A stretch of 32,858 nucleotides of DNA from Boothiomyces macroporosus (lineage: Eukaryota > Chytridiomycota > Chytridiomycetes > Rhizophydiales > Terramycetaceae), in NCBI GenBank assembly GCA_027604185.1, contig JADGKB010000134.1:1-32858 (forward strand), in the 5' to 3' direction. Positions 2,840 through 28,904 of the stretch are shown piece by piece (position 1 is the first letter of the stretch; each line of letters opens with the position of its first letter). The position numbers and the translations under genes are program-made. The notes beneath the pieces are model-generated. The model was given only the letters and a program-made list of their open reading frames with translations, was not told where the DNA came from and ran no database searches.

Positions 2840-3823
2840 TCAGGTGCAGTGAGCAACGTATTTCTTGTGCAAGTATGAGCCAGTGGCAAAACCAGCAAAC
2901 CATTCTAGGATAGTAAAGTCACCTTTAAATACATGAGATAGAGAAACAAATGCAGGCCCTGGGCATAGTCCAACCATTCCCCAACCGATCCCAAATACAC
3001 TAGATCCAACGACTAATTCCCAGGTAATATCCTGTCTGGTTGGGATTTCAAATCTGTCCAAAAGAACTGGCTTTTCAAGGTGTCTTTGAATATAGTTTCC
3101 AATCAAGTTTGGAATAATACCGGCGGCCATCATAATTGCGAGAGATGGGTCAAATATCGGAAAAGTGCCTTCTGGTCTTGGAGCAAATACATTAAAGAAA
3201 GATAGGAAATTGAGTGCCCTGGAAGTATCTGCCATTCCACCCTTTATCAGTCCGTATCCAAAGAATATACCAATCATGAACGAAAACACATCTCTCCAGA
3301 AGAGCTTGTTTTGCCATTTTGAGCTAGTGAAAGCAACACCAAACAATCCCAATAAAGATAATAATACTTGCAATGGTGGAATATCCCAGTCAAAAGTAGG
3401 GGCAATCGTGGTGAATACGTCGGGTTCGGTAAAGAATCTTGTAACCATCGCACTCAGCATAAAGGAAGCTACAGCAACAATGGAACGTTTAGAAGACCTG
3501 GCTATTCCACATAAACCATGCCCAGAGGTGCCTAATATTAATTAAAGAATACATCCTGAACCAAGGGCAGTTCCAAATCCAACAAGTAACCCAGCAGTGG
3601 CAAGTTTGACAGGGTTGGAAGTAATAGTGCTTGTAGGCACTGCAAAAAGAAATCCTGAAGCTACTAGCCCGGCCAAATACGACAACCTAAACGTGAAATC
3701 TTTAGTAATGTAGTGGTAAATTCCAGAAATACCCAATACTCTGCCAAAAATCAAGTGATAAAATGCCGCTGAGAGGCCAACCATCGAACCGCCCAACAAA
3801 CTATTAAATGGTGAAATAATCAT
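2840..3823 (-). CDS. YeeE/YedE-family sulfur-compound transporter
   Basis: Two exons (3553-3823 and 2840-3531) are joined by a 21-nt intron at 3532-3552, giving 320 aa. Splicing rebuilds the family signature exactly: 'GSGC' ends exon 1 and 'TSGHGLCGIARSSKRS' continues in exon 2. The second half carries the matching 'GIGWGMVGLCPGPAF' motif, so the protein has the usual internal two-fold repeat with one conserved cysteine motif per half and about nine membrane segments. Bacterial homologues such as TsuA move thiosulfate or related sulfur species. An uptake role in the plasma or mitochondrial membrane is inference. Without splicing the frame ends four codons into the intron. AATAAA (2831-2836, minus) lies just after the TGA. 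The family is mostly bacterial but also occurs in fungi. Confidence 0.9.
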
Positions 3824-4326
3824 AATGCAATAGACAGAAAATGGGATATTGGCGCGATTTTATAGTTTATGCGGAAAAATTGTAATGATTACTCATAGGG
3901 AAAAAATCATTTCCGCAGGCCGTTTCGAATATTCCACTGTTTCATGGAATACACAATTTGTGCAATATTGACTGATAGGTTATCGGTGGATTGGTAATCC
4001 GTCAATCTATATAGTTATAATGCACTAAATGTATTTGAATGGCGGTTTTTGGTCACTCAAATTAAGAAAGAGGTGGACCAAAATTTCCATCAAGCGGCCA
4101 AGTTTTACATGTGCGCCATAATATTTATGCAATTTATTAATGTGAATTGGTTTAGCATTCTTGAGTGTTTGAATGCAATTTCAAGAGATTTTAAATAATG
4201 GCGAGTAATTTTTTTGGAATTTGATGCATTGCTGATAATTTGCACAAAATACCAGTTGAGGCTTTGCATTAAGTTACCATTTAAGGAACCGAGTTGATTG
4301 ATGAACTTTTAGTACTATAGGAAGCT
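3824..4326. other. Intergenic, 503 bp
   Basis: This is AT-rich sequence upstream of the YeeE/YedE-type gene, with no frame worth reporting on either strand and no tRNA. The promoter of the minus-strand transporter must lie in its left part. I see no clear element beyond poly-A/T runs. Confidence 0.4.
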
Positions 4327-5162: not shown

Positions 5163-6203
5163 TTATTCACTTTTTTTAAAAGAAAACTCCAATTCCTCCA
5201 AATCTTCTTTATGAATGTACTTTATCAAATAAAGATCCTTTTCACTCAACATTGTCTGCAATTGTTTCAAAACAGGCAGGTTTCTTTTACATCCTGCAAC
5301 GTATACAATATACTCGTAGTCTACAAGTGTATGATCAAGTGGCAGGGCGGTACCATTTGCAGCAAATACCTCGTACAGTAATTCTCGTTGTTGTTGATCC
5401 AAAAACGGTGAAACTGAATAGTAGAGATTGTGGATCAATGGTTCTAATAAGTTTGTGAATTTCCTGGTAGCTGAAAAAAATGGCCCATACTCGCTGATAA
5501 ATTGGTTTCTCTCTTTTGCTGTTATTTCTAAAGCAAAAGTTTTGGGGAACTGGATTGGGCGGTAAACTGTGTTTGTGGAGCTGTCTATGTTACCTTGGTT
5601 CCAGAAAGAGTTGGGTACATGCCCGATATTTCGAATATTTGATGCATTGCTTGGCAAGAAAGTCGGTGAACTTGGAGTGTAACTTGGAGAATTAGGAGAG
5701 TAGGCTGGGATTGTCGGAGAGTAACTGGGTAAAGTAGGAGAGTAGACTGGTGATGTTGGAGAGTAACTGGGTAAAGTAGGAGAGTAGGAAGGTAAAGTAG
5801 GAGTGTAGACTGGAGAACTGGGAGAGTACAGCAGTGATTGCTCACATATTTCATTTTCAATAACAATCCTAAATGCAGGTAATTCACGATACATGTACAT
5901 CTTGATCAACTCATACTTGTCACTCAAAGACAATTGAATGATATACCTGCTAGATCGTAGTAATTGATGTTCAAGCCCGCTCGCAACCATCCAAAAGACA
6001 GCTTGTACATTAATTTCAGAATTCAGCAATCTTGTATACTTTGAAGTATCAACAGAGGCTTTAGAGTTGGCTTGAAATTGTTTAAAGGAGCATTGCTGGA
6101 TGAGTGGCAAATTATTTCTAAAACAGGCTCTCAAGTGGAAATAATCAGTGATATTCAAGTGGCTAGAAATTTCCAGCAACTCTTGTGGAATGCTTTCAAG
6201 CAT
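5163..6203 (-). CDS. F-box-like protein with RNA polymerase II CTD-like heptads
   Basis: Single exon, 346 aa, ATG at 6201-6203. The N-terminus ('[20 protein letters not shown]') is an F-box-like helix pair, closely resembling the start of the ankyrin protein encoded at 8904-9788. Residues 126-181 are eight contiguous heptads on the YSPTSPx theme of the Rpb1 C-terminal domain, with Y1 and P3 invariant, S2 often kept and P6 invariant. The C-terminal 150 residues have no motif I know. The protein is not Rpb1: it has no polymerase domains. A substrate adaptor bringing CTD-binding factors, CTD kinases or WW proteins to a ubiquitin ligase is a natural guess, but only inference. The stop codon is embedded in GAATAAAG, so AATAAA overlaps it. 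Confidence 0.8.
5661..5828 (-). repeat. Eight 21-bp units encoding YSPTSPx heptads
   Basis: In-frame tandem array of eight 21-bp units. The encoded heptads are [49 protein letters not shown] and YTPSSPT. Y1, P3 and P6 are invariant. Position 2 is S or T, position 4 is T, S or N, and position 5 is S, L or I. DNA units are similar but not identical, so the array is not brand new and the peptide pattern has been kept. Confidence 0.9.
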
Positions 6204-6355: not shown

Positions 6356-7217
6356 CTAGTTTTTTATTAACGAGTGAATAAAGATATCCAGGTTATAATA
6401 ATTGTTGTTATTTTTAGCGAAATTTACATGTTTACCATTCAACGAATGCTAAATTAATAAAAATTACATTTTCAAAATCAGAAAATCGTTCGTTACAGTT
6501 TTCACAATATCCTTCCTTTTGCATTTTTGATACTTTAAGTTTTTTTGTTATTGGCTTGTATTTTTTTACTTGCCAGCTAGCGTTGCTCTTGTATTCGTCA
6601 GAGTGGAAAGCAGTTAGTTTGCTGTTGAAATTAAGGGTTGGGAATTTGTAATCTGGGTTGTATTCTTGAAGCATTATTGGTTTGTATTGATCTGATAGAT
6701 CTTTGATAAGGATATAATTGTCTTGTGGGTATTTGTAATTTAATAAGGTAGTTCCAAAAAGCTTTTCTTTTTTCAATTTATCTGATAATTGCTGCTTTTC
6801 TAGTTCCAGTTGCTTTGTAAAAGTAACAGTAGTATTGTGATTTAAACGAACTGTATCTGGCGTGTTTGATCGAATATCAGTTGCTTTAGAGTCTCCAATA
6901 ACTTTGAGAATTCGGTTGATTTTCTCTATGGAAAATAGTTTCATCTGTAACCGATTGCAGATCTCTTGGATATCACCCTTGGCTTTCCCCATCTCTGGAG
7001 AATTAGAAATAATATGGGTAACAGAAAACGACAAGTTATTCAGCACCATTCCACCATGTTTTGTGATTCTTTGTTTCAGCTCTTCGTCTTGGAATCCGTC
7101 AAAGTAAAATACTAGTTTTTTGAAATTCTGCTTCCATGTGTTGATCTGGTCTTGGGATATATTTGGGTTAATGGGAGCTAATGGCTGGCGTTTAAGTGGT
7201 TGTGGTGCCTTTAACAT
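6356..7217 (-). CDS. DBF4: Dbf4-type regulatory subunit of Cdc7 kinase (DDK)
   Basis: Two exons (6468-7217, 6356-6448) are separated by a 19-nt intron at 6449-6467; 280 aa. All three Dbf4 motifs are visible. Residues about 33-105 are a BRCT-like N-motif with 'VFYFDGF' and 'THIIS'. Residues about 168-186 are the M-motif ('YILIKDLSDQYKPIMLQEY'). The C-terminal C-motif zinc finger has Cys238 and Cys241 in exon 1 and His251 and His257 in exon 2. The intron falls exactly between the cysteine and histidine pairs, and without splicing the finger is lost. Dbf4 activates Cdc7 to phosphorylate Mcm proteins at replication origins in the nucleus. The protein is much shorter than yeast Dbf4, keeping little beyond the motifs. 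AATAAA (6363-6368, minus) lies inside the last codons. Confidence 0.92.
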
Positions 7218-11363: not shown

Positions 11364-11364
11364 A

Positions 11365-11416: not shown

Positions 11417-14319
11417 CTATGCTTTATTGGTCATTGCGGTTCGGATTGATTTGAGATAAGCTAGTAGGTCTACCTCGTCGGTAACTGCTCTATCGGCTAA
11501 TCCTAATAAAACTTTTCTCCATTTCTTTTCGTATGGTGAGTAATCATCGTTCTGGTGCGAGTCTAATACTACCACTGGGGTCCCATAGTCGACAGCAGTC
11601 AAGCCAGCAGCAACAGTGGATTCATCAATCTTGCTTGTAGTCAAAACAACTGCTATAGGTTGGGTATTGACCAGTTGGTGATGGAAAGATAGTAAAGTTC
11701 TAGAAATTAAATCCTTACCCTTGTCCAACCCATAATCACCCCTTCCTAATTCCAATGTCCAATAGCCCAAGAAATTCTCTTTCCATTTAACACTAGTTCC
11801 AAAAGTAGCCTGAATTTCGGTCAAAAGATCTAAATTCTGTTGGTCGGTATGTGTGCTTAAACCACCAATAGACACAAACGGTCTCCATGTTTTTCCGTCT
11901 TGAGCTCCTTTCTCCTTGAGTTTAACAATTGCTTGATGTGCTTTAACCAAAAACTGTGCTTGTGCGTTGTCTTTGACATAGAACATGACGTTAATGTGTC
12001 TTTCGTACATCATGTACGCTCGAGGTCTAGTCATGCCTCTATTTAATAAATACCATGCAACAGTGTTTCGCAAGTGATGTGGATCCCAATCAGCACCATT
12101 ATAATGCTTGAGACCATTCCCAGTTGTTTTTTCGCCATCAGCAATTGTTTCGAAATCAGCGCTATGCAAAAAGGATGTCTTGTCGTTCATGTCAACTGGG
12201 AAAATGTAGGTAGGGATATTTGCATGTTTGGACAGCATGGCTCTATGATTAATATTATTTACGTTAATTGGAAATCTTCGCCTGTAGCATATGTTATTGG
12301 ATCTTCGACAAACATAAACTTTACCCATTCTTGTTTCATAAACCATAGCCCTCCAACAACATCTGCTTGTTCTATATGTTCTGGCTCGTGAGTGAAATAA
12401 TTGTAATAGTATTCTGATTGCTCCAATGTCTTTTGCTCAGTATTAATCACATGGCCTTTACAGCCATACATACCATAGTAATCATTCGACTCGAGATTAA
12501 AGGTGTGAAGCATGTTTCTGAAAGCATGAACACCTTCTGGGATTACATCGTCATCAAAGATTGCTACATATTTGGTTGGGGCCAAGAGACCAACTTGGAA
12601 ACGTGCAAAATAAGTAAATTGAGGTGCGCCAGTAATCAAGTGTACTGGAATTTTGGTTTTGCCAGACGCGTTATATTCGTCAATGATTTTTTTGTATTCG
12701 CCCTCGAATGGTGATGAAAAGGCTGTAATCCAAATTTCTTTTGGTGGAATTGATTGATTGGCAATAGCCTCTACTATTCTAATAATGGTTTTTGGTCTCT
12801 TGTAAGTTGAAATTATTGCTGTTATTCCGTTTTCTCCTACACCGTCGCCATTCTCAGGAAATCGTGATTTCATTTCCAGTATATCTTTCAGACTTCTATC
12901 TGGTGCCATCTTTGGTGGGGAAGGTGGAACAGGAACTACATCGTTGGACAACTCAGCCGACATTGATCCGGAAACCGCAACACTATGCACAGCAGCAGAA
13001 GTAATAGTTTCAACAATTCTCTTTGCAGCTTTTCCATCTCCGTACGGAGAGCTGGATTTAACAAATGATTTGTAATATTCCAAATCAACAAGCATTCTGT
13101 TTCCTTCGTTGAAAATATCAGTTTCTTTAGTTCCGACTAATTTGGCAACCCCTGCATTGACCCCTTCTGGTCTACTGTTAAAATCTGCCTACCTTTCTGT
13201 GGTTTCGCGAAGCACAAGAATAGGGACAGAAAACGCGGTTGCTTCTTCTTGAATACCGCCTGAATCTGTCATTACTAAATACACCGACTTCATCAGATGC
13301 GCAAACACATCATAATCGAGAGGCTCACAAAGGACCACGTTGCTGACTTGCGCTAGCTCGGTCTGTGCAACCCTTCGCACTTCAGGGTTCATGTGCATCG
13401 GGAAAACAAATCTAACAGTTGGATGTTCATTAGCAAGTGCTTTGATTGCTTTGCAAATATTCTCAAGTGGTTTACCCCAATTTTCGCGTCGGTGTGCTGT
13501 CACAAGAACAATCTTCATATCGTTGCAGTCGTCGCAGTTTTTGCGTATCTTGCGTTCCAGTTTAAGTGCTTTTTCAGTTGGTGGCTGGACAGACATCCAC
13601 TTGAGAGCATCAATCACTGTGTTTCCTGTCACTTGCACCTGGCTATTTGGCAGTCCTTCCTTGATCAAGTGCTTGTACGATTCAGATGTTGGTGCAAAGT
13701 GAACTGAAGCAAGAGATCCAATAACTCGTCGATTGAGCTCCTCTGGGAACGGATTGTATCGCTGATATGTGCGCAAGCCAGCTTCGACATGACCAACTGG
13801 AACTTTGTGATAAAACGCAGCTACGGAAGCAATAAACGCAGATGTTGTGTCGCCTTGTACAAGGATCCAGTCCGGCTTTGTCTTTGCAATCGCGTCGCTG
13901 ATCCCGCTCATCAATCTATATCAAGAACAATTACTTGACGGACAGATCTGGAAGTTTCTGATTGGCCACCATCACATTCAAGTTGATATCTACTTTGATT
14001 CCAAAAGTCTTTAGCAAAGGCGCAACCATTTCTTGATGTTGGCCCGTAGCCAAAACAATCGACAGCACATCGTTGCGCTAAAATTAAGCATTATTACCTG
14101 TTGCAGCTCATTGATAACTGGAAACATCTTTATTGTTTCCGGTCTAGTACCAATGATTGACATTACCCTAAGTGAGTGATTAGAGTTTTGCAAAAAGTCA
14201 TGTTGTATTTCATCTGGCTTTGAACTTGTTTTGTGAAAGAAAATAAAGTAACCGAGAGTTGAATAAACAACGGCGAGCAGTATTCTAAATTTAAGCTTTT
14301 TCGAGATCTTTGATTTCAT
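11417..14319 (-). CDS. UDP-GlcNAc 2-epimerase fused to a glycosyltransferase, membrane anchored
   Basis: Five exons (14098-14319, 13935-14077, 13193-13915, 12263-13171, 11417-12242) with introns of 20, 19, 21 and 20 nt; 940 aa. Residues about 10-30 are a signal anchor. Residues about 50-390 are a non-hydrolysing-type UDP-GlcNAc 2-epimerase: 'IGTRPETIKMFPV', 'VQGDTTS', 'HVEAGLRT', 'FPEELNRR', 'TGNTVIDAL', 'TAHRREN', 'TDSGGIQEEA', and 'TERPEG' rebuilt across intron 3. Residues about 475-940 look like a GT-A transferase with 'AIISTYKRP' and a DDD metal motif in 'VAIFDDDVIPEG'. The epimerase would make UDP-ManNAc (or ManNAc), and the second domain could transfer it to a glycan; this coupling is inference. 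The animal GNE enzyme has a kinase, not this partner. The ATG at 14319 is preferred over the TTG at 14325. AATAAA (11423-11428, minus) lies three codons before the stop. Confidence 0.88.
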
Positions 14320-14346
14320 CAACAAAATTCGTTTGTTTGTTTCGTT

Positions 14347-14871: not shown

Positions 14872-15781
14872 ATGAGCTCAACGTCATTCATACAATTATT
14901 CGCAACATACAATTGGATGCTAGTACTCTATCTGCAAATATTGTTTATAATTCTATTCCTTTTGCTTCTAGTAATAGCTGCTGTTTCATTGGTGTATATC
15001 AACAAAGGCTCCAAATTTCGAGGGTATTTTCACGCGTTGTTCAATCTGGTAACTACTCTTTGTGGAATCCAGTCACTGCTCATTCTGCTATGGATTATAC
15101 TCAAGATTTATGATTCCGGGAATGGTTTCATATTGTATACCATCACCTCCATTCAAAATTTGGTGGCAAACATCCAAATTACCTTGATTGTGTTGATTAA
15201 TATTGATATACTTCAGATATTCGCCATTCTCAACCCGAATATAAGTAAAACACAATTGCAGAAAATCAAGATAATTGCAATATTCAGTTACTTGATTTTT
15301 CCAGTATTTAGCAATGTGATTTGTATATTTACTACTTCAGATCTAGCTAATTTGATTGCCACAATATTGTCTGGTATATTTGCAGTTATTTGTGTAGTCA
15401 CGGATAATATCCAAAGCATTTACCTAATTTACGCAATAAGAAACTTTAAGACTACACAGAAAAGTAAGAGGGTAATCAGCGTACAAAAGAAATTCCGCGA
15501 ATTGCTATATTATTACATGGCAATGATCCTCGTAGATTGGATAGTAATTTTAATTGATGTAGGGAGTAGGAAATTATTTAGCAGCAAACGTTGCCTATTC
15601 AGATACTATATTCTATGATTATTTTACTCTGGCTAGCTTGTTTACTGTTAGTATTCATGCGATGGGAATGTTTCGGTGCCTGATGCACTTGAGTGATCTA
15701 GTACTGGGAAGAGGTAAAAGTGATGATAAACAATCAAACTCGATATCAGTTCCAGAGTCATCCACTGTGAGCAAAGGTTGA
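14872..15781 (+). CDS. Seven-transmembrane protein, GPCR-like topology
   Basis: Two exons (14872-15565, 15585-15781) with a 19-nt intron at 15566-15584; 296 aa. Seven hydrophobic segments are spaced like a 7TM receptor: about residues 12-37, 45-70, 80-110, 124-146, 155-183, 205-228 and 238-264. A Ser-rich cytosolic-type tail ('KSDDKQSNSISVPESSTV') follows. The intron falls between TM6 and TM7; without it TM7 is lost. I see neither a DRY nor an NPxxY motif, and it does not share the 'HKNIYP' motif of the other 7TM genes in the window, so it is a separate family. The ATG at 14872 is chosen over the TTG at 14779 because the latter adds a non-hydrophobic, unlikely leader. AATAAA lies at 15797-15802. 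Confidence 0.75.
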
Positions 15782-16634: not shown

Positions 16635-16701
16635 TTCTTTTTGGACTTTTAGTGTCCAAATCAACTCAAAATGATAATCATAAACAATTGTTTGGTACGC
16701 T

Positions 16702-18176
16702 TTATTCATAAAAGCATTCAATGTCCCATCTACTTTTTCCAGCACTTGTACCAACATACTTTACAAACTCAAGAATATCATCTCTTAGAACAATAGACAA
16801 ATCGTTGAATGCGACTGGTAAATCTAGCAGCACGTCATCCCCACCTTCCTGGTAAATAGTTTCGTCTCCTTCGTCTCTGCTAGTATAAATCTGATATCCT
16901 CCAAACGAATCTTTCCATTCTCCAACAGACAAGTTTAATGTAACAGATAGACATTCTTTAACGGTTGCCAAAGTGTAATCAAGACCAGGGCGGAACCTGC
17001 GTGCGTTGATTGAATGCTTGGTAATTGTCATTACAGATATCTTTGAAATATATTTTTGAAACTCTTTGGATTTAAAGAAATGTAGTAGCTCGGCTATCAG
17101 AGGCTCTTTGCTTTTATCTTCCAGTATTTGCAATCTCTGAACATGAATCGGGCCAACTGTTTTCCAACCGTCAGATTGAGTTCCATGTGGAGGCATAGTA
17201 TCTTTTTTGAATATAGAATCCCTTTCTACTAGTAAATGCTGAATCTTTTTAGCTAGAGAAGGTTCAAGGAAATCCTTTAGTAGAATAGCTGAATCTTCAA
17301 CAAACTTGCCACTCATAGATTTGAGGAATGAATCTTGCAAGTACTTTTCGTTAATGAATTTCTTTAAATCCACATGGGTATCAGTGAATTCTTTGAAATC
17401 AATTGGCTTGGCTTTTGAAAGCTCTGATAATGTTGAATTTACCAAATTCCTTTTGCCAGTGGTGAATCCTTCTTCGCCTTCTTGCGCAACATGGAACCTG
17501 CTTTAATTTGTAATTACCATCCTTGACAAGATAATCGTTCTTTGTTTGAAACTACTTGTTCAACTGAATGGAAACTCTTTCCTGGTTCGACAGCAAAAAA
17601 CACAATCTTGTTCCATTCAACATCGATTCTCTTACTTGGCTCAATATCAGGTACGCCATCTTTTTCTCCGTAAAGTTCCAATGCTCCTCCATCAGTCGGT
17701 TCCCAATCACTGTCTACCAAGTACAAGATGAATGAAATCATTCTGGTAGAAATCATATCATCATGAACCAGCAAGTGACAGCCCTGAGTATAATTATTGA
17801 ATGCCATATCTACCTTTTCACCAGATAAAGGCTCACAACCAGTGATTTCTTGAACAAAATTGCGAAATTCTTTAGAATAGATTCCGTTGTACAATTCAAC
17901 TACCGATTCAAGCTTTGAAAGTTCCTGGCTTTTTAATCCTTTGAGATTAGCCAAGTCGCCAGACTGATTAAGGGTGTATATATCAGTTTCTTTACGTTTG
18001 TATGATAAATTTGAAAGGATTTCTTTTCGAACTTTTCGCAAGAGACTGTCATTGATTATAGATGGGATTTCCACATGTCTGTATGGTTGCGAGTCATTGT
18101 ATCTCTGTTTCAAAGACTCTGTGCTGTCTAAATTGATGTTGAATGTCGAGTGTTTTAATTTTTTTTGGGTTGGCAT
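16702..18176 (-). CDS. Tpa1/OGFOD1-type prolyl hydroxylase of ribosomal protein uS12
   Basis: Two exons (17518-18176, 16702-17497) with a 20-nt intron at 17498-17517; 484 aa. The N-terminal half is a catalytic 2-oxoglutarate/Fe(II) dioxygenase domain. The iron ligands are His138 and Asp140 in 'LLVHDD' and His203 in 'FHSVEQV', with an Arg about 11 residues later for 2-oxoglutarate. 'MISFILYLVDSDWEPTDGG' is characteristic. The intron splits 'LSCQGW' from 'FHVAQEGEEG', matching the family's 'SISGWFH' block. The C-terminal half is the second, non-catalytic double-stranded beta-helix. The enzyme hydroxylates a proline of small-subunit protein uS12, affecting decoding and termination. AATAAA (16701-16706, minus) contains the stop codon. 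Confidence 0.93.
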
Positions 18177-18285: not shown

Positions 18286-19061
18286 CTATTTCTTTATTAA
18301 CGATCTGAATGGGCGCTTTGGCAATAGAAATCCGGGAATATTATCGCCATACACAGCCAATTTCTGTATGAATTTCTCATCTATGTTACTTGAATGTACC
18401 TTTGTGATTAGTGTTGTTGAATACAGCCTTCATCACTTCCTTGATATTTGCCTCTAGTTTTTCGTTTTGCCAAGATGTATTTCCAATCAACAGATCCAAT
18501 TTATCTCTGATTTCTAGTTTGATGGTCGAATTGGTTTCCCCCATCATTTTTGTAAGATCGTCTCCCACAGTTCCTTTTGCTGGTGACGGCATTAACCCTT
18601 TAGGCCCCAGTATCTTTGCTATTTTCACTACGTTTGGAAACATTTGCTTTGTAGACAAACAACGATCAAACTGTAACTGGTTCTGGGTAATCTGCTCTAG
18701 TAATTCCACGCCGCCAACGATATCTGCTCCCAACTCTTTTGCTAATTCAGCATCCTTTCCCGTTGCGAAAACAAGAATCTTTGGTTTATCCATTTCGATA
18801 GAGTGCGGTAGTCCAACCAGACATCTGCATTAGTCTAAAGTACCGTATAGGCTGCTTTTGCTGTTCAATCTCCAAGTGCAGCTTCAAATCCAATGGCTGT
18901 CCCAACGCATAGATTTTGACCAAGTCAAATATTTGTGTAAGAGGAATTTTCTCGTCAGACAGACTTGCTTTCAACTTTTTCTTTTCTTTTAAATACCTCT
19001 TCCTATCGTAAAATCGAACCTGTTTTATCGTTTGCTTGAATGGTTGTATTAGTCTGAACAT
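18286..19061 (-). CDS. MRPL1: Mitochondrial ribosomal protein uL1m
   Basis: Model: 18844-19061, 18400-18824 and 18286-18380, introns 19 nt (18825-18843) and 19 nt (18381-18399); 245 aa. The N-terminus ('MFRLIQPFKQTIKQVRFYDR') is basic and amphipathic, as in mitochondrial targeting. The first splice restores 'CLVGLPHSIE' followed by 'KPKILVFATGKDAELAKELG', the uL1 core; 'MFPNVVKIAKILGPKGLMPS' is the classic uL1 signature. uL1 forms the L1 stalk at the ribosomal E site. The third exon is less certain: without it the protein ends after 'NHKGTFK' at 18386. I favour it because the intron fits the consensus, the frame beyond reads like protein, and AATAAA (18293-18298, minus) lies near its stop. 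Confidence 0.88.
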
Positions 19062-19326
19062 GGATGAAAAAAAAACTTTGAAAAAATTGTTGAAGGGAAA
19101 CTTGAATAGATATGCAATAAGCGAGACATGTGTTATAGAATATAACGACATGTGTTCGATCCTTGAGACAGGCAGTGAGTACGCGGATAAATCTTTATTC
19201 ATAGTGGTTGGGTATTTACAACTGCAACACTAGAGAACTTGTACTCGTCAGATTCAGGAGTAGATTTGGAATAGAATGGATTCCAAGCCTGTTCTTTGGA
19301 TGAGCTCACATAAATCTGTTCTGCAA

Positions 19327-20311
19327 TTAACCAAGAGTACCTAATACCTTGCTAAAGAGCGGAACTAGTGGATAAATATTCTTGTGACTTCCATTATTTA
19401 TAAATGCGAGTATTGGCGATAGTGAAATTACCATCATCGCAAATGTACCTATATCAACATTAGTTACCAATATACACGTTAATTGCTGACGGGAATATCC
19501 AAATAAGCCACTCGAATGCAAATATAAAGCCCACGAAAGGAATAGTGTATCCGATTTGAAGGACTTGGAATACAACATATCCTGTATAAATTGTATAGTA
19601 CCAGGAATGCCGTTCGATTGGGCAACTGATATCATCCGCTCAAAATTCGCTTTCAGTTTGCGATAAGTGAGGATCGATCTGAATAAACCATAGAATGTCG
19701 TCAAGATACTGATTGTATAAGTCGCAATCACTATGTTAATTTGACTTACGCGTATAAGAGATATTTTGAGCTCTGATGACATATCCATTAACAGAATACG
19801 GAGTCATTCCTCTGGCATACATTTCTACCCAATACAAAATCAACAGAATTATTCCTGGTACTAAGGCAACAGAGAAAAATGCCAGTGGCCGTTTTGTCAA
19901 TAGTTTCAATGTGAATGTGTGCGATGTAGTCAGCATTACATCCAGCGCAACAATTTGGCTTACACCAGCTAAATAGATTGGTAAACAAGCAACCATAAAT
20001 AAGGACGGATTAACGTAGTGTATCCATGTACTTTTGGTAACATTAATATCCGGGTGATCAAAATATAACGAACCAGCATCCCAATTGCAACGCAGCAATT
20101 CTGATTTTGAAAATATTGCAATAACGCAAAACGCCGTAGTCGTGAATATTTGTATTAGTGAACTGTACTGCATTGGGGTAACAGTTCTCTTTATGAATGC
20201 TCTTGCTACACCTATGGATAAAAGGATTAGTAACAACAGTCCAAATGCATCGCAGAGTAGTACGAACAGAATGAAATAGTTTGATATACGCTGTTGAGGG
20301 TCGTAAAACAT
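19327..20311 (-). CDS. Seven-transmembrane protein, 'HKNIYP' family, three introns
   Basis: Four exons (19750-20311, 19602-19730, 19468-19581, 19327-19448), introns 19, 20 and 19 nt; 308 aa. It is a diverged paralogue of the 7TM genes at 29234 and 30707. Shared blocks are 'TPMQYSSLIQ' after TM1, 'VLQIGYTIPFVGF' (visible only after the second splice), 'INVYIGT' (rebuilt by the third) and 'NGSHKNIYPLVPLFS' at the end. Read without introns 2 and 3, the frame stays open but yields an unrelated 35-residue stretch, a trap for ORF-based annotation. Seven hydrophobic segments are present. It belongs to no receptor family I know; it could be a sensor or a transporter. Confidence 0.82.
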
Positions 20312-21487: not shown

Positions 21488-21692
21488 TGATGGATATTGT
21501 TTCCTGGAAACTGGAGTATTTTATACCAGATCTTGTACGCTCGGTTAAATACTCGGGTAATAGGCCGAGGCTCAACCGAGAAAACAATTGGTGCTGCTAC
21601 TGCTTCAAAGTAAATACTGACTAATGTGATATGGTTACACTTGGAGTTGAAACTATTATATTGCCAAAACACTTTTACATTTAATCGAATCC

Positions 21693-22177
21693 TTAGCAAT
21701 ACAAAGGCAAATGCTCTTCATGAGGAGTTCTATAGTAGAGATATCTGTATTCCCCGCCAGCTCCAGAATTCAAATCTGTAGAATTTCTAAACCATCCGTC
21801 TCTGTGATGGTCAGAATCATGCACATCCAGCATGGTAATTCCATACTTATGGCCGCCTCGCTTTACTCCAAGATAGACATATTTCCCTCCTGCTCCTTTG
21901 TTCAAATCCCCAGGTATGATTTCCCAGCCATGGTGAATTCCTGTGTGTTCATGGTCGGATGCAAACACTTGTATATCAGTAATACGGCGTTGCGTTTCTG
22001 TATGGCACTGTAATCTTTTAAAGAATATGTAAATGAATTTCCCTCCAAGACCTGGAATTAAAGTGGTATACCCTTGTTTAAATCCTTATCTAGTATATCC
22101 CAACCGTCTGGAACATCCCTCTCTTCCCATTTGCGATCACTAATCCAAACATAAATATCTACTATTGGCTGCATCAT
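21693..22177 (-). CDS. Stand-alone MABP-like beta-prism protein
   Basis: Two exons (22072-22177, 21693-22051) with a 20-nt intron at 22052-22071; 154 aa. Three repeats share the signature 'GW....DLN.G.GG.Y.YL..KR': 'DLNKGLGGKFIYIFFKR' (rebuilt by the splice), 'DLNKGAGGKYVYLGVKR' and 'DLNSGAGGEYRYLYYR'. This is the three-fold pattern of the MABP domain, known from MVB12 subunits of ESCRT-I, where it binds acidic membranes; it also occurs in other proteins. Here it forms the whole protein. Start is either of two adjacent ATGs (22175-22177 or 22172-22174). Membrane binding is inference from the fold. Confidence 0.82.
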
Positions 22178-22825: not shown

Positions 22826-23577
22826 ATGCTCTTCCCACTAGTCCAAGCAATTACATTCGCCCAATACCACGGCGGTCCAGTTATCCATTCAGCACAAGTT
22901 GTACCAGTACTCCTAGGCCCAACTCCTACTTCCTTTCCTTATTACAAATCCATTCAGCATTACTATGCTCAAATAATGGATTCGCCTTATATTGACATGT
23001 TGAGCGAGTATAATAATAAAACAAAGATTATTAGAGGTAAAAATTGATAATGTAGGTAAAGCATGGACTCCGCAGTATATTTTTACTGATAAATCTACTT
23101 TTGACGATAACGATATTATGGATTCGTTGGGGGCAATGGTTAAAAGAGGAACTATTAAGCCATCCGTAAATACTATTTATGCTGTCCACGCATCCCCAGG
23201 CATTGCAATTACATTTTCAGGTTTAGAATCCTGCAAGACTTTTTGCGCCTACCATTCCAACATGGGATTGGATGATGGCTCCACACTGATCTACACTGTT
23301 ATCCCAGATACTGACTGTGCATTATGCGGTGGGTTCTACAACAATTACAATAACTTTGGGATGATGGCTAGCCATGAATTGGTAGAAGCTATTACCAATC
23401 CTGATACTGGTAATTCCTACTAATTTAGCTAGTGGGTGGTACGCAGGCACCTCTGATGTTCAGGATGAGATTGGTGATATCTGCGCTTGGCAATTGGGCA
23501 CCATCAAGGGCTGCGATGGGATAAACTATCCGGTTCAAAAGATTTGGTCCAATCAAAATCAAGCTTGTATCGTTTAA
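22826..23577 (+). CDS. Secreted HE-motif protein (EXORDIUM/PHI-1-like start, putative metallohydrolase)
   Basis: Three exons (22826-23036, 23056-23409, 23429-23577) with two 19-nt introns (23037-23055, 23410-23428); 237 aa. A short hydrophobic leader precedes 'YHGGPVIHSAQVVPVLLG', like the mature start of EXORDIUM-type proteins. Near the C-terminus 'MASHELVEAITNPDT' carries a His-Glu motif. After the second splice it is followed by 'SGWYAGTSDVQDEIGDICAW' and 'VQKIWSNQNQAC'. This 'SHE..EA.TDP...GW...EIGD.C.W...W.N...C' pattern is shared by secreted proteins of bacteria, oomycetes and amoebae. The His/Glu/Asp residues may bind metal, but activity is unproven. AATAAA (23576-23581) overlaps the stop. 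Confidence 0.8.
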
Positions 23578-23666
23578 TAAAGTACTTTTTTAATGCTTTT
23601 GATTATCCGCAATGAGGCAATCGTTGTTGATGGCTGTACATTTACCAGATTCAACGAAATCACAAA

Positions 23667-24150
23667 ATGGAAAAAGTAAAGACCTTTCGGCTGATTACTC
23701 ACAACAAAAAGTATGTCCTGGGGGTAATGATAATCAACCTCATACTCGCAAGGTAAGCACGTGCTAAGATAGGTACAATTAATTAACCCAGCATTCAAGT
23801 ATCTCCAACTAACATAGATCTATTTCGTTAAAACCATTCTTGTTTTTACTATACTTCAGTCAATTAACCTCGCATTGCTGTTATCTGCTTTGCTGACTAT
23901 TTATTGCAACTATGCGCTGTACATGTTTATATTTTGCATTCTGTGGACTGTGAATTTGCTCTTGTACTATGTATTTTGTATAATGATATTTTCAGACTTT
24001 GGGACGTGGGATTATGTTCGGTTTGGGATAGGCTTGTTTGTCAATATTATCGCGGTAGTGTTTGGATTGTCCTATGCCATTCTAATGTACCGCAAGCAAA
24101 GAGCGAAACAGCTGAGTGGAGTCAATATCATTGAATTACAACAAATCTAA
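23667..24150 (+). CDS. Small four-transmembrane protein with clustered tiny introns
   Basis: Model: 23667-23752, a 7-nt exon 23792-23798, and 23818-24150; 141 aa. The intervals between are 39 nt (23753-23791) and 19 nt (23799-23817). TM1 ('YVLGVMIINLILA', completed across the splices) is followed by three more helices in the last exon ('TILVFTILQSINLALLLSAL', 'FIFCILWTVNLLLYYVF', 'FGIGLFVNIIAVVFGLSYAI') and a basic tail. No family is recognised. Without removal of all the intervals every path hits a stop within a few codons. The microexon makes this model less certain than others. AATAAA lies at 24181-24186, 31 bp past the stop. Confidence 0.6.
23753..23817 (+). other. Intron cluster: 20 nt + 19 nt back to back, 7-nt exon, 19 nt
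   Basis: Unit 1 (23753-23772) ends GCTAAGATAG, unit 2 (23773-23791) ends ATTAACCCAG, and unit 3 (23799-23817) ends ACTAACATAG; each has GT, a branch-like TAA and AG. Units 1 and 2 abut as AG|GT with no exon between. Removing only one of them leaves a stop codon in frame. Either this is one 39-nt intron, or two introns removed one after the other. Confidence 0.6.
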
Positions 24151-24260
24151 TATACCACATCTCAGGCTTTATGCGAGTCAAATAAAACACGGTGCACAAC
24201 CAATAAATTGATCCGCATCCACAAAAACATAAATTTTCAATATCGTAATGTATTCATTGC

Positions 24261-24864
24261 TTATTCTTGTAAGGTAGCAGCTGGGAATTCAAATACAACA
24301 TCTTTTCCAGTCAACTTCTTGTAAGCAGATGAAAAAGTATCCAATTTGTATTCAAGTGCAGTGTGGTCTTTGCGGTCCAAAAAGACTTTAATTACTTTAC
24401 TTCCATCAACCTTAACTTTGGTTCTCTTGCCAACAATTTCAGTTGGGTAAACCATATCTTCCAATAATTGTTCATGGACTGAGGTCAAAGTACGTGAACG
24501 TGGTCTTTTTTGGGTAAGACGAGATTTGTGAGATGGTTTTGAAAGAATACGACGTTGAGCGACTAAAAGAACATGACGGTCAGAGAATTTCTTTTCTAAT
24601 TCACGGACAAGTCTTGCTTGAACTTTGTGGAAAGATCGGAGTTGTGGTACTGGGACAAAAATAATGATTGCTTTGCGTCCATGTCCAATTTCAACCTATA
24701 TTAACTAGAATTACTTCTTTTGCAGAGGTGAATTGAAGTCCACGGAGGTCAGCCTTGAGTTCAGCAACATTGTGTTCAAGGTCGTAAATGTTTTGAGCGA
24801 CTGAAAGTTCTAAATCGTCTGGTTGTTGACCTGCTGGTTTGATGATTTTAGTGCGTACGCTCAT
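24261..24864 (-). CDS. RPS7: 40S ribosomal protein eS7
   Basis: Two exons (24715-24864, 24261-24695) with a 19-nt intron at 24696-24714; 194 aa, the normal eS7 length. The splice restores '[20 protein letters not shown]'. '[20 protein letters not shown]', '[20 protein letters not shown]' and '[20 protein letters not shown]' are diagnostic. It is part of the small-subunit body and of 18S rRNA processing. The start ATG is 24862-24864; upstream in-frame sequence is 5' UTR. ACGCGT lies 54 bp upstream. At the stop the signal is AATAAG rather than AATAAA. It faces the 4TM gene tail to tail with a 110-bp gap. Confidence 0.97.
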
Positions 24865-24917
24865 CTTTGAAAAGTAACTTTTTTCCTTTCTTTTTTCGTT
24901 TGATTTTTTTGGACGCC

Positions 24918-24923
24918 ACGCGT
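24918..24923 (-). promoter_or_regulatory. ACGCGT upstream of eS7
   Basis: ACGCGT 54 bp before the eS7 ATG, next to a long T-rich run on the plus strand (24886-24910) that is the A-rich leader of the transcript. Confidence 0.35.
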
Positions 24924-25137
24924 TAGCTGATTGGTTGATTAATTCTCCGAGGTAAGACTCAAAAAGCAAATGAAAGGGCAAGATGCACTAGAAAAGATTA
25001 TATCAGAAATACACTGTGAATTTGCCGTGAATGGTTAAGAGGATGTTATATCACTCTATGTTTTTTAATTCTCTTTAAAGCCCACCTGCTATACTAAACT
25101 GCCAACTAACTAATGAGCTGCAAACTTTGTTAAATGG

Positions 25138-25142
25138 ACGCG
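25138..25142 (+). promoter_or_regulatory. ACGCG upstream of the LIM gene
   Basis: ACGCG core 18 bp before the LIM ATG, within the 295-bp divergent promoter shared with eS7. Confidence 0.3.
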
Positions 25143-25159
25143 GATGTTTTCCTATAAAA

Positions 25160-25609
25160 ATGGCAGTAAAATGTGTAGCGTGTAACGAGCCAGCAAACGA
25201 AATCACAGATAAACAAGTGGGAGACTGGTATTTTCATCCCAAATGCTTCAACTGCGCAAACTGCAAGCAGTATATTGAAATGTCTGCAAAGTTCTTTAAA
25301 CATCCAGACAAATCGAGAGAAGGCGCGATCGTATGCGAGCCTTGCAAGAATTTGCTGTTGCCAAAGCACAATCCGAAAAACAAACTAGGCGGCCAAGGAT
25401 ATCAAGTAAACGTACCCAAGATGCAATCTGGCGGTGTGGATTGCTTCAGCTGCGGCAAAACTGTGACGGACGTAGATAAACTCATCGCGATGGGAAATAC
25501 CTTTCACGTAAAGTGCTTCACCTGTAGCAAATGCAACAGGATTCTAAATCAGGCAGATTACGAGTCTAAAGACAAGAAGCCGTTTTGTAAAACTTGTTTC
25601 ACCAAATAA
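25160..25609 (+). CDS. Two-LIM-domain protein (CRIP/PINCH-like)
   Basis: Single exon, 149 aa, ATG at 25160. LIM1 is residues about 5-63 ('CVACNEPA', 'WYFHPKCFNCANC', 'GAIVCEPC'); LIM2 is residues about 91-147 ('CFSCGKTV', 'TFHVKCFTCSKC', 'PFCKTC'). The zinc ligands follow C-x2-C...H-x2-C-x2-C...C-x2-C in both. They are joined by a basic linker. LIM-only proteins are adaptors, often at actin structures or in transcription complexes; partners are unknown. The stop codon lies within AAATAAAAA, so AATAAA (25605-25610) overlaps it. The next gene starts only 36 bp later on the same strand. Confidence 0.92.
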   Translation: MAVKCVACNEPANEITDKQVGDWYFHPKCFNCANCKQYIEMSAKFFKHPDKSREGAIVCEPCKNLLLPKHNPKNKLGGQGYQVNVPKMQSGGVDCFSCGKTVTDVDKLIAMGNTFHVKCFTCSKCNRILNQADYESKDKKPFCKTCFTK

Positions 25610-25645
25610 AAATCGCCTGATTTTTGCTTTTTCGAATTGGTGATA

Positions 25646-27006
25646 ATGTCTTTGGGGGAATCAAACCTGCTTATAGAATTAGGACCGGCAAAATTAAACT
25701 GTTTACAACGAGGCAGAACTTATGCGGTGTTGGGAGATTTTTCTGAATTTAACGAAACCACGCTGAAGGGAACTTTGAATAATCACCAGCTAACGAGAAA
25801 GGATTATGCGCTTGTTCAGGACGATTTACTACAGGACGACTGCACTGTGCTGGACACGCTAATGTTTGCTGCAAATTTGAAATACCCTTGTTCACTCTCT
25901 GTTCAACAAAAACGAAAGGCAGTGGAAGCACTCTGTTATAAATTGGACTTGACGCCAAGTGACAAGATCAAAGATATCCATAATAGAAAGCATGTTATGC
26001 TTGCGCAAGAGTTGCTTACAAATCCAGAGGTGCTAGTTTTGCAATTGGAAAAGGGAGACAAGGAACTGCTGGCTGTAATAGGGGATTTGGTAAAGACCGA
26101 GCTTAAAACTGCTCTGGTATCCCTTGAGCCATCTTGCGGCCATTTTTTAGAGTATATGGATTCAGTAATAGTCGTTGGAAAGGGAACCATCATTTGGCAA
26201 GGAACTGTTAGCGGTAACGTTATACTAATATAGATGCTGTATCACATTTCACGGCGTTGGGATACCCTCGCCCTGCGTATACCAACCACATTGAATATTT
26301 GTCAGCCTTGGTTCTCAAAAAAGGACGGGAAAGCGACAAGGACACAACTGACAGGATTACATATTTGGCAAACGAGTATAAAGCAATTAGAACTGAATGT
26401 AAACCCCCTGGTACAGACCAAGCTTATGTTCATCCGTCTTTACTGCTTTCTGTGTTGTTCTTTATCACTGTTAACAATAATGGAGGTAATTTCGACACCA
26501 ATGGTTTTACTGACTTGCTAATTTTGAATAACTCAGTTCAAAGCGCACTGGCCTATTATATTTATCGCTCTGGAAGGATAAACAAATTCATGTCGATATT
26601 CCAACCTGTACTGGCAGCAAGTGTGTTATTTGCTCCAACAATCCCAAACAACTTGCCAATTCAACTGTCTCTAATTGTTTCTAATCTTTGCATTCTATTG
26701 ATTCAAAATCTACAAGTATTGTCAGTTTCCTACTGCTTGGAACCAATATTTGGACAAAATGCTACTCTAGGTATTATTTTTATGTCATTTGCCGATTATT
26801 TCTTCCAAACAGGGTGGTTAAAGATGCTTTTAGGCTCCAGCATCAAATTTAGCAAAGACATGGGAATGGATTATCTCCATCTCACTGCCAATGTTATTGT
26901 TGGGCTGTCATTGATTCTAGCAGGATACCTATACCGTCAAGGCTTGTGGAAATCTCAATACTACGATTTTGGGTACACAAGAATGAATAAAAAGTGCTTT
27001 ATTTGA
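25646..27006 (+). CDS. Degenerate ABCG-type protein (inactive nucleotide-binding domain)
   Basis: Two exons (25646-26213, 26234-27006) with a 20-nt intron at 26214-26233; 446 aa. The order is that of an ABCG half-transporter, NBD then TMD, but every catalytic motif is eroded. The Walker A position reads 'GDFSEFNETTL' without the lysine. The signature reads 'IHNRKHVMLAQEL' in place of 'SGGERKR...EL'. Walker B reads 'VLVLQLE', lacking the Asp/Glu pair. The Q-loop ('LVQDDLLQD') and the 'GYPRPAYTNHIEYL' linker are kept. The TMD has about five to six helices. The intact frame, proper intron and normal neighbour spacing argue against a simple pseudogene. It may be a regulatory or partner subunit. 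It ends overlapping the intact ABCG gene by 8 bp, tail to tail. Confidence 0.82.
26986..27003. terminator. Back-to-back poly(A) signals of two convergent genes
   Basis: AATAAA on the plus strand at 26986-26991 lies inside the last codons of the ABCG-like gene. AATAAA on the minus strand at 26998-27003 contains the stop codon of the ABCG gene. Coding regions overlap at 26999-27006, so the two transcripts must be antisense to each other at their 3' ends. Confidence 0.7.
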
Positions 27007-28904
27007 GCCTCATTAAAGGTTTTGAACTATAAGAGAACACAATGGTGCCCAAAATCAAGAATGCGACACCTAATCCAGCATTAACCGCAATAGATCCCCA
27101 CAAATCTGGGGTTCCAAATCCATAAGATTTCACAACACTAGGGCCATCTGGAAAGCAAGGCTGGTGTGTACAAGAAAAGACGGCATTGGCATTAAATTCG
27201 TTCTGTACAAATGCCTTCATAGTATACGTTAGGAAAGAAATCCATTGAATCCACCGTAAAAATACTGGGGCGGTATCTAAATTCAACAGTAGGCCAGAAA
27301 ACAGCACGAATACAATCAGAACTAGGGGGGTCACGATTTGCCCTACTGTAGCACTGGGAACTGCTGATCCAATCATCAATCCGAGCAGATTAGCGACTAA
27401 AGCTTGGATTAGCAGAATCAATAGAAAAGTAAAGAAATTTGCGACATTGTTGTACAACCCAACAATCCAGTACAACGGAGTACCAAGGATAATGACTACA
27501 ATAAATACGAGAGGAACAGTTGAAGCTACTTTGGCCAAGTAAGCAGAAGTTGCTCTATAAGACCCAGCGGCTCTTTCTCTCTTGATTCTAAATTAGTAAA
27601 TATTACAGTTTCTTTGTTTCAGGAAACGCATTCACAGTAGGCATTACATTACCAAAGGTCATGTTTAAGGTAAGAAAGAAAAATACACCGATTCTGTTTT
27701 GTATACCTGCAATATCATTTGTTACATTGTAATACAAAATTGACACGATCAACAAGTTGACGCAAGCTTGCCCCAGGGTTGCGAATACTACTGCTTTGTC
27801 TCTTGTCATATTGATAATGTATCTATGCAGGATAATAAAGAATTCGTTTATCCATAGTGATGGCCAAGCTACTTTGGTAGATGTTTCAACTGCTTCAGGC
27901 GGAGTGCTTGGATTTGGATTTGAAACTACGAGTTTTTCATATGCTTCTTGGAATAGAGCGATTCTCTTTAGTGACTCTTCTCGCAATTTTTCATCTCTTT
28001 GATCAATTGTGATAATGTCGATAAAGTAGTCGCTAGGGTTGGTTTTTGGCGGAAGCTTATATCCAAGACCATCAAAGTGGGTTATGGCATCTGTGTAAAT
28101 TAAATGGTACCTGTAGTTGACCCAAACCACATCACCTTTCCAACACTCAACAAAAGCACCTTGTCAAAGAGCTCTAAAATATCCGTTCGTGGTTGATGAA
28201 TAGTCATCAGTACCAGCTATCGTTAAGCAATGCCAACCTTGTTTTCCTTCTTGGCCAATTCTTTAATGCTCTGAATAGTGTTGAATGCGTTAAAGGCATC
28301 TAACCCCGAAGTTGGCTGAATTAGAATGATTTACCTCATCCAAGAACAGGATATGTGGATTTGTTACTAGTTCAATACCAATTGACACACGTTTACGCTC
28401 ACCACCACTAATTCCGCGAACTAGTTCATCTCCAATTGGCGTGTTTTTGCAACCAGTGAGACCTAATTGAGAAATCACACTGTTGACTCGAGCCTCTTTT
28501 TCGGCAATAGTCATAGTTCTTGGGAGTCGAAGTAGGGCAGAATACCGTAGCGTTTCGAAAACAGTGAGTTGTTTAAACAGGATGTCGTCCTGCTCGACAT
28601 ACGCACACTGCAAGGTCCAGTTACGTGGCGACCTTTTCTTTCCATCCAACAAAATATCACCGGACAATTCCCCAGGTCCAATTCTACCAGCAAGGGTGTT
28701 CAATAAGGTTGACTTTCCGGCTCCAGAACCACCCATAATGGCAATCATTTCGCCAGCACGTACCTCACCTGAGACGTTTGTCAGCAACTGTTTCTTGGTT
28801 TTGTTAACAGTTACTGACAAGTTGACATTTTTCCATGAAAAGCATTTTGGCGCGTTTGGAATTGGTGATATATCTTGGATATCTACTTTAACGTCTTCTG
28901 TCAT
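26999..28904 (-). CDS. ABCG-family half-transporter, intact
   Basis: Five exons (28335-28904, 28238-28315, 28111-28216, 27607-28090, 26999-27587) with introns of 19, 21, 20 and 19 nt; 608 aa, a normal ABCG length. Walker A 'GGSGAGKST' is at about residues 58-66, the Q-loop at 'EQDDILF', signature 'ISGGERKRVSIGIEL' at 165-179, and Walker B 'ILFLDE' at 185-190, directly followed after the first intron by 'PTSGLD'. 'LMTIHQP' carries the H-loop. The TMD has six helices and a Cys-containing loop ('SCTHQPCFP') before the last. It should dimerise to export lipids, sterols or drugs. Every intron join restores a family motif, so this gene is the best proof of the intron rules. Confidence 0.96.

What the first reader, a model, noticed from the sequence alone, without database searches (positions are those of the whole stretch)
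2840..28904. A genome-wide system of 19-21-nt spliceosomal introns
Twenty-three introns in twelve genes are 19 nt (13), 20 nt (7) or 21 nt (3). Most are fixed by homology: splicing restores YeeE 'GSGC|TSGHG', the Dbf4 zinc finger, ABCG 'LFLDE|PTSGLD', eS7 'AKE|VEIGHG', uL1 'VGLPH', epimerase 'TE|RPEG' and Tpa1 'GW|FH'. Exon phases add up in every gene. Introns this short and this uniform are known in chlorarachniophyte nucleomorphs (18-21 nt) and, even shorter, in Stentor (15-16 nt). I do not know of them in a genome with this gene content. They raise the question of how a spliceosome fits on 19 nt.
Basis: partly seen in the sequence, partly recalled or inferred. Interest (0 to 1): 0.93.

Follow-up and report, generated by a model that had tools for sequence, protein, structure and literature searches.

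The report
Nineteen-nucleotide introns throughout a chytrid fungus
A chytrid fungus, Boothiomyces macroporosus, has genes cut throughout by introns of about 19 to 22 letters, among the shortest known, although the splicing-machine parts that could be found look ordinary.

Summary
The window is contig C134 of a 15.2 Mb genome, identified as the chytrid Boothiomyces macroporosus. In the window plus 20 fixed 10-kb samples from 20 other contigs, GTA..AG intervals that join two open frames peak only at 19, 20 and 21 nt (44, 67, 17 seen; control means 12.3, 11.0, 1.4); no other length from 6 to 100 passes the same test. A motif scan that ignores reading frames peaks at the same lengths. Introns read GTA, then YTRAY with the A usually at position 14-16, then 5-6 nt to the 3' end. 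Homology-guided models of 13 genes list 33 introns, 32 of them 19-24 nt and one 46 nt. U1, U2, U4, U6, PRPF8, U2AF65, SF1 and CWC25 are present and look conventional; CWC25 keeps the N-terminal glycine plug reported missing in Stentor. New here: back-to-back introns with zero-length exons, e.g. three abutting 19-mers whose removal restores a conserved HNAWDNVE motif. Such tiny introns are known in ciliates, mikrocytids and nucleomorphs; my searches list none this short in fungi. No RNA was seen.

The parts
3532..3552 (-). 21-nt intron in YeeE/YedE-like sulphur transport gene
   Evidence: splicing gives GSGC|TSGHG; Pfam Sulf_transp matches residues 48-119 of the spliced protein, across the junction
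6449..6467 (-). 19-nt intron in Dbf4-like gene
   Evidence: zf-DBF score 40.3 bits spliced, 23.3 unspliced
12243..12262 (-). 20-nt intron in epimerase/glycosyltransferase fusion gene
   Evidence: joins two long open frames (929 and 822 nt); only a sub-threshold Pfam match covers it
13172..13192 (-). 21-nt intron, same gene
   Evidence: restores TE|RPEG inside Epimerase_2 (374.6 bits over 73-421)
13916..13934 (-). 19-nt intron, same gene
   Evidence: lies within the Epimerase_2 match
14078..14097 (-). 20-nt intron, same gene
   Evidence: lies at the start of the Epimerase_2 match
17498..17517 (-). 20-nt intron in Tpa1-like gene
   Evidence: GW|FH; deposited proteins of B. macroporosus and Terramyces read the same
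18381..18399 (-). 19-nt intron in uL1-type ribosomal protein gene
   Evidence: inside Ribosomal_L1 match 4-141 of the spliced protein
18825..18843 (-). 19-nt intron in the same uL1 gene
   Evidence..CL|VGLPHSIEMDKPK; Terramyces P0002 reads RCLVALPHSIEMDKPK
19321..19340 (-). 20-nt intron, 7TM gene 20311-19100
   Evidence: paralogue alignment runs across the junction
19449..19467 (-). 19-nt intron, same 7TM gene
   Evidence: restores FPSAINVYIGTFAMM against paralogue YPSPVNVYYGTFGMV
19582..19601 (-). 20-nt intron, same 7TM gene, missed by the motif scan
   Evidence: restores GIPG|YVVFQVLQIGYT against paralogue VPNYVIYQVLQIGYT
19731..19749 (-). 19-nt intron, same 7TM gene
   Evidence: ungapped paralogue alignment across the junction
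22052..22071 (-). 20-nt intron, unidentified gene
   Evidence: open frames and motif score 13.5 only
24696..24714 (-). 19-nt intron in eS7 ribosomal protein gene
   Evidence: AKE|VEIGHG aligns without gap to a solved eS7 chain
27588..27606 (-). 19-nt intron in ABCG-type transporter gene
   Evidence: inside the printed alignment, beside a one-residue gap
28091..28110 (-). 20-nt intron, same ABCG gene
   Evidence: inside the printed alignment
28217..28237 (-). 21-nt intron with GTT donor, same ABCG gene
   Evidence: restores K|LVLMTIHQP inside the printed alignment
28316..28334 (-). 19-nt intron, same ABCG gene
   Evidence: restores LFLDE|PTSGLD inside the printed alignment
15544..15562 (+). 19-nt intron, unidentified membrane-protein gene
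   Evidence: extends the frame from 279 to 327 aa; motif score 19.2; no homology
23037..23055 (+). 19-nt intron, unidentified gene
   Evidence: joins open frames; motif score 16.3
23410..23428 (+). 19-nt intron, same gene
   Evidence: joins open frames; motif score 19.5
23753..23772 (+). 20-nt intron, first of a back-to-back pair
   Evidence: score 16.8; abuts the next intron with no exon between
23773..23791 (+). 19-nt intron, second of the pair
   Evidence: score 14.0; removing both gives ..NLILASIQIYFVKT..; frame evidence only
23799..23817 (+). 19-nt intron after a 7-nt exon (23792-23798)
   Evidence: score 17.5; frame restored
26214..26233 (+). 20-nt intron, ABC-transporter-like gene
   Evidence: joins 607- and 768-nt open frames; score 18.5

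Best explanation
These are ordinary U2-type spliceosomal introns shrunk to near a minimum across the genome of the chytrid Boothiomyces macroporosus. Each is little more than a 5' splice site (GTA, often GTAAT), a short T-rich spacer, a branch site (YTRAY, A at position 14-16) and 5-6 nt ending in YAG. A largely conventional spliceosome (U1, U2, U4, U6, PRPF8, SF1, U2AF65, CWC25, ISY1) most likely recognises each intron as a unit and removes it through a lariat loop of about 14-16 nt. Shown: the intervals, their consensus, lengths and genome-wide spread, exact protein repair, and the presence of these parts. Inferred: that they are spliced from RNA, that the YTRAY A is the branch point, and how the complex fits. 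Occasional back-to-back introns with no exon between them would be removed either stepwise or as one larger intron; any order gives the same product.
For: Length spectrum with a single peak at 19-21 nt, with accepted introns in each of the 20 sampled contigs and the window. Frame-free motif scan with the same peak. Branch A at position 14/15/16 in 57/48/12 of 120 introns, tail 5-6 nt in about 96% by the fitted model. All six PRPF8 introns (20,19,21,21,22,22) fall at ungapped places of alignments to solved PRPF8 chains. Homology-guided models of 13 genes list 33 introns, 32 of them 19-24 nt. U2 with GTAGTA, U6 with ACAGAGA and U1 with ATACTTACCTG, U4, SF1, U2AF65 matching solved chains over its RRM and UHM regions, CWC25 with MGGGDLNLKKSWHP, ISY1. 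The deposited protein already carries the 20-nt Tpa1 splice.
Against: No RNA data. U5 was not found (the tool says this does not show absence). U1 scores 68.8 bits, just under its cut-off of 69.5. The introns' +5 base is T in about half and G, the base expected for best U1/U6 pairing, in only 9-25% by length class. A 46-nt intron exists (ISY1), so length is not fixed. In 152 introns with clear frames, in-frame stops are not enriched (97 of 152, against 209 of 304 in the other two frames), so there is no sign of Paramecium-like stop selection.
Confidence: 0.95

Rival explanations
1. [quoted passage not shown]
For: Uniform tiny size; no RNA was seen here.
Against: GT-AG ends plus a branch motif at near-constant spacing that fits the U2 and U1 sequences found; intron-recognition proteins SF1 and U2AF65 are kept.
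Confidence: 0.02
2. Assembly or sequencing errors (indels) imitate introns in a gene-dense genome.
For: Lengths not divisible by three resemble frameshifts.
Against: Insertions of 19-22 nt with one consensus, in each sampled contig and in conserved genes, are not an error pattern.
Confidence: 0.01
3. The abutting introns are single 38-57-nt introns that only carry relics of old boundaries, not working introns in series.
For: The deposited methyltransferase protein lacks the 57 nt without trace of steps (P0243); 40- and 41-nt nucleomorph introns were read as fusions of two (PMC4494063, passages).
Against: Each of the three units has a full motif with scores 18.0, 17.8 and 20.9, where reversed sequence gives one 19-nt hit over 16 in about 466 kb.
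Confidence: 0.4

Closest known systems
Chlorarachniophyte nucleomorph introns (18-23 nt; PMC4494063, passages read)
   Same: Nearly the same length range and GT-AG ends; rare 40-41-nt cases explained as two fused tiny introns
   Different: Those sit in relic nuclei of about 0.37-0.61 Mb, U4 found in none and U1 in only one of four; here a 15.2 Mb fungal genome with U1, U2, U4 and U6
Stentor coeruleus introns (15-16 nt; PMC9505925, section 4 parts 1-2 of 3 and section 10 read)
   Same: Branch A at a fixed place, 5-nt tail, GUA donor (commonest intron begins GUAAU), canonical snRNA motifs
   Different: Loop 10-11 nt against 14-16 nt here; Stentor CWC25 is reported to lack the N-terminal glycine plug, here it is present
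Mikrocytid introns (16-17 nt; PMC10245619, passages read)
   Same: Uniform tiny introns with conserved sequence
   Different: 224 introns and a spliceosome of 17-19 identified proteins; here about 250 introns are estimated in 233 kb alone, and PRPF8, SF1, U2AF65, ISY1 and CWC25 were found
Cryptococcus neoformans short introns (PMC11913375, passages read)
   Same: Fungus rich in short introns
   Different: 'Ultra-short' there means under 60 nt; 40-60 nt are spliced best and those under 40 nt poorly

Membership tests
U2-type spliceosomal introns | GT-AG ends | tested here: met
   all 33 listed introns (models were built with GT-AG ends, so partly by construction); the unbiased length peak appears for GTA..AG and not for control end-pairs
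U2-type spliceosomal introns | Branch site that can pair with U2 | tested here: met
   YTRAY at near-fixed spacing; U2 with GTAGTA. Pairing itself is inferred
U2-type spliceosomal introns | Major spliceosome encoded | tested here: met
   U1, U2, U4, U6, PRPF8, SF1, U2AF65, ISY1, CWC25 found; U5 not found (not conclusive); other parts not searched
U2-type spliceosomal introns | Removal from RNA through a lariat | not testable with these tools
   no RNA reads available
Genomes with uniform ultrashort introns | Narrow length peak below about 25 nt genome-wide | tested here: met
   32 of 33 listed introns are 19-24 nt
Genomes with uniform ultrashort introns | Hardly any longer introns | tested here: inconclusive
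   no excess at 23-100 nt, yet one of 33 is 46 nt and an abutting train reaches 57 nt
Reduced spliceosome of tiny-intron parasites/nucleomorphs | Loss of U1, U4 or recognition factors | tested here: not met
   U1, U4, SF1, U2AF65 present
Stentor-type adaptation | CWC25 without glycine plug | tested here: not met
   MGGGDLNLKKSWHP, identical to the start of the solved CWC25 homologue chain 5yzg_X
Stentor-type adaptation | Divergent ISY1 N-terminus | tested here: inconclusive
   predicted N-termini of Boothiomyces, Globomyces, Kappamyces and Gorgonomyces differ from the MARNEEKA of Spizellomyces and Chytriomyces, but gene models there are uncertain

The most novel reading that the evidence does not exclude
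An essentially complete, unspecialised spliceosome removes 19-nt introns, and runs of abutting introns by repeated splicing through zero-length exons, without the factors that human spliceosomes need for short introns (RED/Smu1, SPF45). The distance of about 50 nt that human extracts need between 5' splice site and branch site would then be a feature of that system, not of the spliceosome.
Probability: 0.3. Interest if true: 0.85.

Novelty: new member of a known kind. Interest (0 to 1): 0.7.

Why it matters
Tiny uniform introns have been tied to odd lineages: giant ciliates, parasites, relic nuclei. A fungus with a human-like PRPF8 and the usual recognition factors makes the question of how a spliceosome fits on 19 nt approachable in a relative of the standard splicing models. 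It already bears on one proposal: loss of the CWC25 plug is not needed. It also matters for databases: both of the two deposited B. macroporosus proteins I looked at are damaged, one fusing two genes (P0001), one cut short where a 19-nt intron was missed (P0243).

Tried and rejected
Codon-based and Markov coding models were too weakly trained to find introns well: the first gave 7, 8 and 9 at 19, 20 and 21 nt against control means of 2.4, 1.6 and 1.0, with only 21 flagged; the second gave 1, 0 and 2. They were replaced by the open-frame test. In-frame-stop selection was tested and not supported. Avoidance of intron-like decoys in genes (110 open frames): at score >10 sense strands hold fewer such motifs than synonymous shuffles at lengths 14-17, 18, 23-25 and 26-40 (15 vs 26.2, 1 vs 4.7, 6 vs 10.4, 41 vs 57.3) but more at 19-22 (29 vs 14.9), where I presume real introns lie inside open frames; I draw no conclusion. 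RED_N and SPF45 among 7 G-patch hits (judged by motif and eye) were not found; both negatives are weak, since no control genome rang for RED and genes are broken by introns. The start of ISY1 is unresolved: I read 20 nt + 1-nt exon + 20 nt; the deposited model of a sister strain (P0121) implies a 49-nt intron instead. Left out of the 33: two N-terminal introns of U2AF65, three of ISY1 (the N-terminal pair and a 20-nt one near the 3' end), further SF1 candidates, and the methyltransferase introns (57 nt as three units, 19 and 20 nt), found after the count. SF1 junctions rest on recalled human sequence. Eukaryote DNA from relatives (Terramyces, Globomyces) is not in the collections, so spread of the trait could not be tested. 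Novelty searches: all of which list at most 40 papers; none of the listed papers reports a fungus with introns this short as far as titles, abstract starts and the passages I opened show. A review says Malassezia has 'very short introns' without lengths (PMC7426719, one passage); the primary Malassezia paper was not held, nor did one search list the paper that I recall as describing this genome.
Full report
Where it is. The window is the whole of contig C134 in a held genome of 15,203,306 bases in 216 contigs. A window protein (Tpa1-like prolyl hydroxylase) is 100% identical over 97% of its length to a deposited protein of Boothiomyces macroporosus on a contig of the same length, 32,858 bases; the next hit is Terramyces sp. 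JEL0728 at 82%. The taxonomy is Fungi, Chytridiomycota, Rhizophydiales, Terramycetaceae. That it is a saprotroph is recalled.

Is it real, and is it general? I took 10 kb at a fixed position (20001-30000) from each of contigs C1 to C20, so the sample was not chosen for introns, though it is from the longest contigs. In these plus the window (232,858 bases) I counted GTA..AG intervals that join two frames each open for at least 60 codons and that are not open if read through. Counts at 19, 20 and 21 nt were 44, 67 and 17 against means of 12.3, 11.0 and 1.4 for ten control pairs of end sequences; no other length from 6 to 100 passed the same four-sigma mark, 22 nt included (19 against 13.5). A mixture model on the 160 candidates of 18-23 nt accepted 120: 33, 58, 16, 10 and 3 of 19, 20, 21, 22 and 23 nt, with members in each of the 20 sampled contigs and the window.

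Anatomy. In the 120, the donor is GTA (a condition of the search) with A most often at +4 and T in about half at +5; the branch motif is YTRAY, its A at intron position 14 in 57, 15 in 48, 16 in 12, and elsewhere in 3; the tail to the 3' end is 5 nt (fitted share 0.55) or 6 nt (0.41). In 19-nt introns positions 6-9 are 52-61% T, the only room for a pyrimidine tract. Using this model without any reading-frame condition, and with length left free, score >16 gives 48, 50, 23 and 7 hits at 19, 20, 21 and 22 nt, against 1, 2, 0 and 1 in reversed sequence, and no more than 5 at any other length from 14 to 40. The model was trained on these 120 introns, so peak height is partly circular.

Homology. 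I built spliced models of 13 genes and list 33 introns: 19 nt (13), 20 (9), 21 (6), 22 (3), 24 (1), 46 (1). Support varies. All 6 in PRPF8 lie at ungapped, highly conserved places of printed alignments to solved PRPF8 chains. eS7 (1), ABCG (4, the last beside a one-residue gap) and two of three listed in U2AF65 are inside printed alignments. Four in a 7TM gene of the window are fixed by an intronless paralogue in the same window: 209 bits over 310 residues with all four removed, 102 bits with the three I had first modelled. Dbf4, YeeE, one of two in uL1 and three of four in the epimerase gene rest on Pfam matches that run across the junctions, for Dbf4 with 40.3 bits spliced against 23.3 unspliced. 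Tpa1 and the first uL1 junction rest on deposited proteins, ISY1 on an alignment of chytrid proteins. The CWC25 junction lies in a poorly aligned stretch, the two SF1 junctions rest on recalled human sequence, and 12243-12262 rests on open frames. Of the 31 with 22 nt or less, 27 score over 12.

How many. At score >12 there are 255 hits at 19-22 nt; lengths 23-40 average about 9 hits each, so about 220 are real; corrected by 27 of 31, about 250 in 232,858 bases, or very roughly 16,000 in the genome. This is an extrapolation.

The machinery. U2 is present twice, with the branch-pairing GTAGTA. U6 has ACAGAGA and U1 begins ATACTTACCTG; U1 scores 68.8 bits against a cut-off of 69.5. U4 scores 58 bits; it was found in no nucleomorph with similar introns, and those authors call its absence consistent with the intron size (PMC4494063, passages). 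U5 gave no hit (not conclusive). PRPF8 is 2,329 aa and scores highest with human-type chains. SF1 is found, as is U2AF65 with its RRMs and UHM, itself cut by introns of 19-21 nt. CWC25 starts MGGGDLNLKKSWHP, as does the solved homologue, whereas the Stentor paper reports loss of this plug and suggests that such differences avoid a clash with a tight loop (PMC9505925, section 10). So that loss is not a general need. A human study found splicing abolished in extract at a 5' splice site to branch distance of 46 nt and a need for Smu1 and RED on short introns (PMC6692369, abstract, section 7 and passages). Here the distance is about 14 nt; RED_N gave no hit and none of 7 G-patch hits looked like SPF45. 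These negatives are weak.

Trains. Looking for neighbouring introns, I found pairs with no exon between them. On C6 (L008, minus strand, 8632-8688) three 19-nt units abut, scoring 18.0, 17.8 and 20.9. Of the readings tried (all removed, any one kept, none removed), only removal of all 57 nt keeps the frame open and gives VFDHNAW|DNVEF in a protein of the tRNA N3-methylcytidine methyltransferase type; N, A, W, D and V of this motif are invariant in an alignment of 11 proteins from chytrids to fission yeast and an insect, one of them my own model and three from Boothiomyces or Terramyces. In the 120 listed homologues the pattern HNA[WY]D[NH]V occurs in 62 and HNAW[DE] in 71. The deposited B. macroporosus protein also lacks the 57 nt but reads into the next 19-nt intron and stops at 208 aa, while that of Boothiomyces sp. 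JEL0866 reads as mine does. In the window 23753-23772 and 23773-23791 abut, followed by a 7-nt exon and a third intron; this gene has no homology support. Among candidate pairs, gap 0 occurs 3 times (2 places) while gaps 1 to 60 together occur 13 times. A train is self-correcting: any order of exact removals gives the same message. Whether it is removed in steps is not known.

Negative results. In-frame stops are not enriched in the true frame (97 of 152 against 209 of 304), so Paramecium-like selection for stops is not seen. G at +5, expected for best pairing with U1 and U6, is found in only 9-25% by length class.

Comparison. In size and make-up these introns match chlorarachniophyte nucleomorph introns most closely; Stentor and mikrocytid introns are shorter. 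In fungi, a 2025 study calls introns under 60 nt ultra-short and finds those under 40 nt poorly spliced in Cryptococcus (PMC11913375, passages). My ten library searches list no paper that shows a fungus with introns this short; Malassezia ('very short introns', PMC7426719, no lengths in the passage) remains unchecked. I therefore call it a new member of a known kind, apparently the first in fungi, with trains as an addition.

Noticed in passing
L008 8632-8688 (minus) and window 23753-23791: Back-to-back tiny introns with zero-length exons; three units in a tRNA methyltransferase gene, two in a gene for a predicted membrane protein.
   Followed up: partly
L017 about 9110-9155; L033 1259-1299: Two tiny introns separated by a 3-nt or a 1-nt exon (the second in ISY1, where the deposited model differs).
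   Followed up: partly
P0001 (HK103_001356) and P0243 (HK103_005920): Deposited proteins damaged by tiny introns: one fuses uL1 with Tpa1, one is truncated at a missed 19-nt intron.
   Followed up: partly
window 5163-6203 (-): Protein without a Pfam match that carries repeats resembling the RNA polymerase II tail heptad (YSPTxP type), seen by eye in the reverse strand around 5650-5840.
   Followed up: no
window 16194-16267 (-) and 16562-16635 (+): Two tRNA-Lys(TTT) genes in inverted orientation about 300 bases apart.
   Followed up: no
window 11417-14325 (-): UDP-GlcNAc 2-epimerase fused to a family-2-like glycosyltransferase (the latter below its Pfam cut-off) in one gene; unusual for a fungus as far as I recall.
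   Followed up: no
L036 and L037 (C49:3194-3481 and C100:4789-5076): CWC25 is present on two contigs; the 1,000 bases compared are identical, perhaps an assembly duplicate.
   Followed up: no
window 19100-20311 (-) and 29204-31714 (+): A family of related 7TM proteins, with four tiny introns in one gene and none in a paralogue about 11 kb away: intron loss or gain between paralogues.
   Followed up: partly
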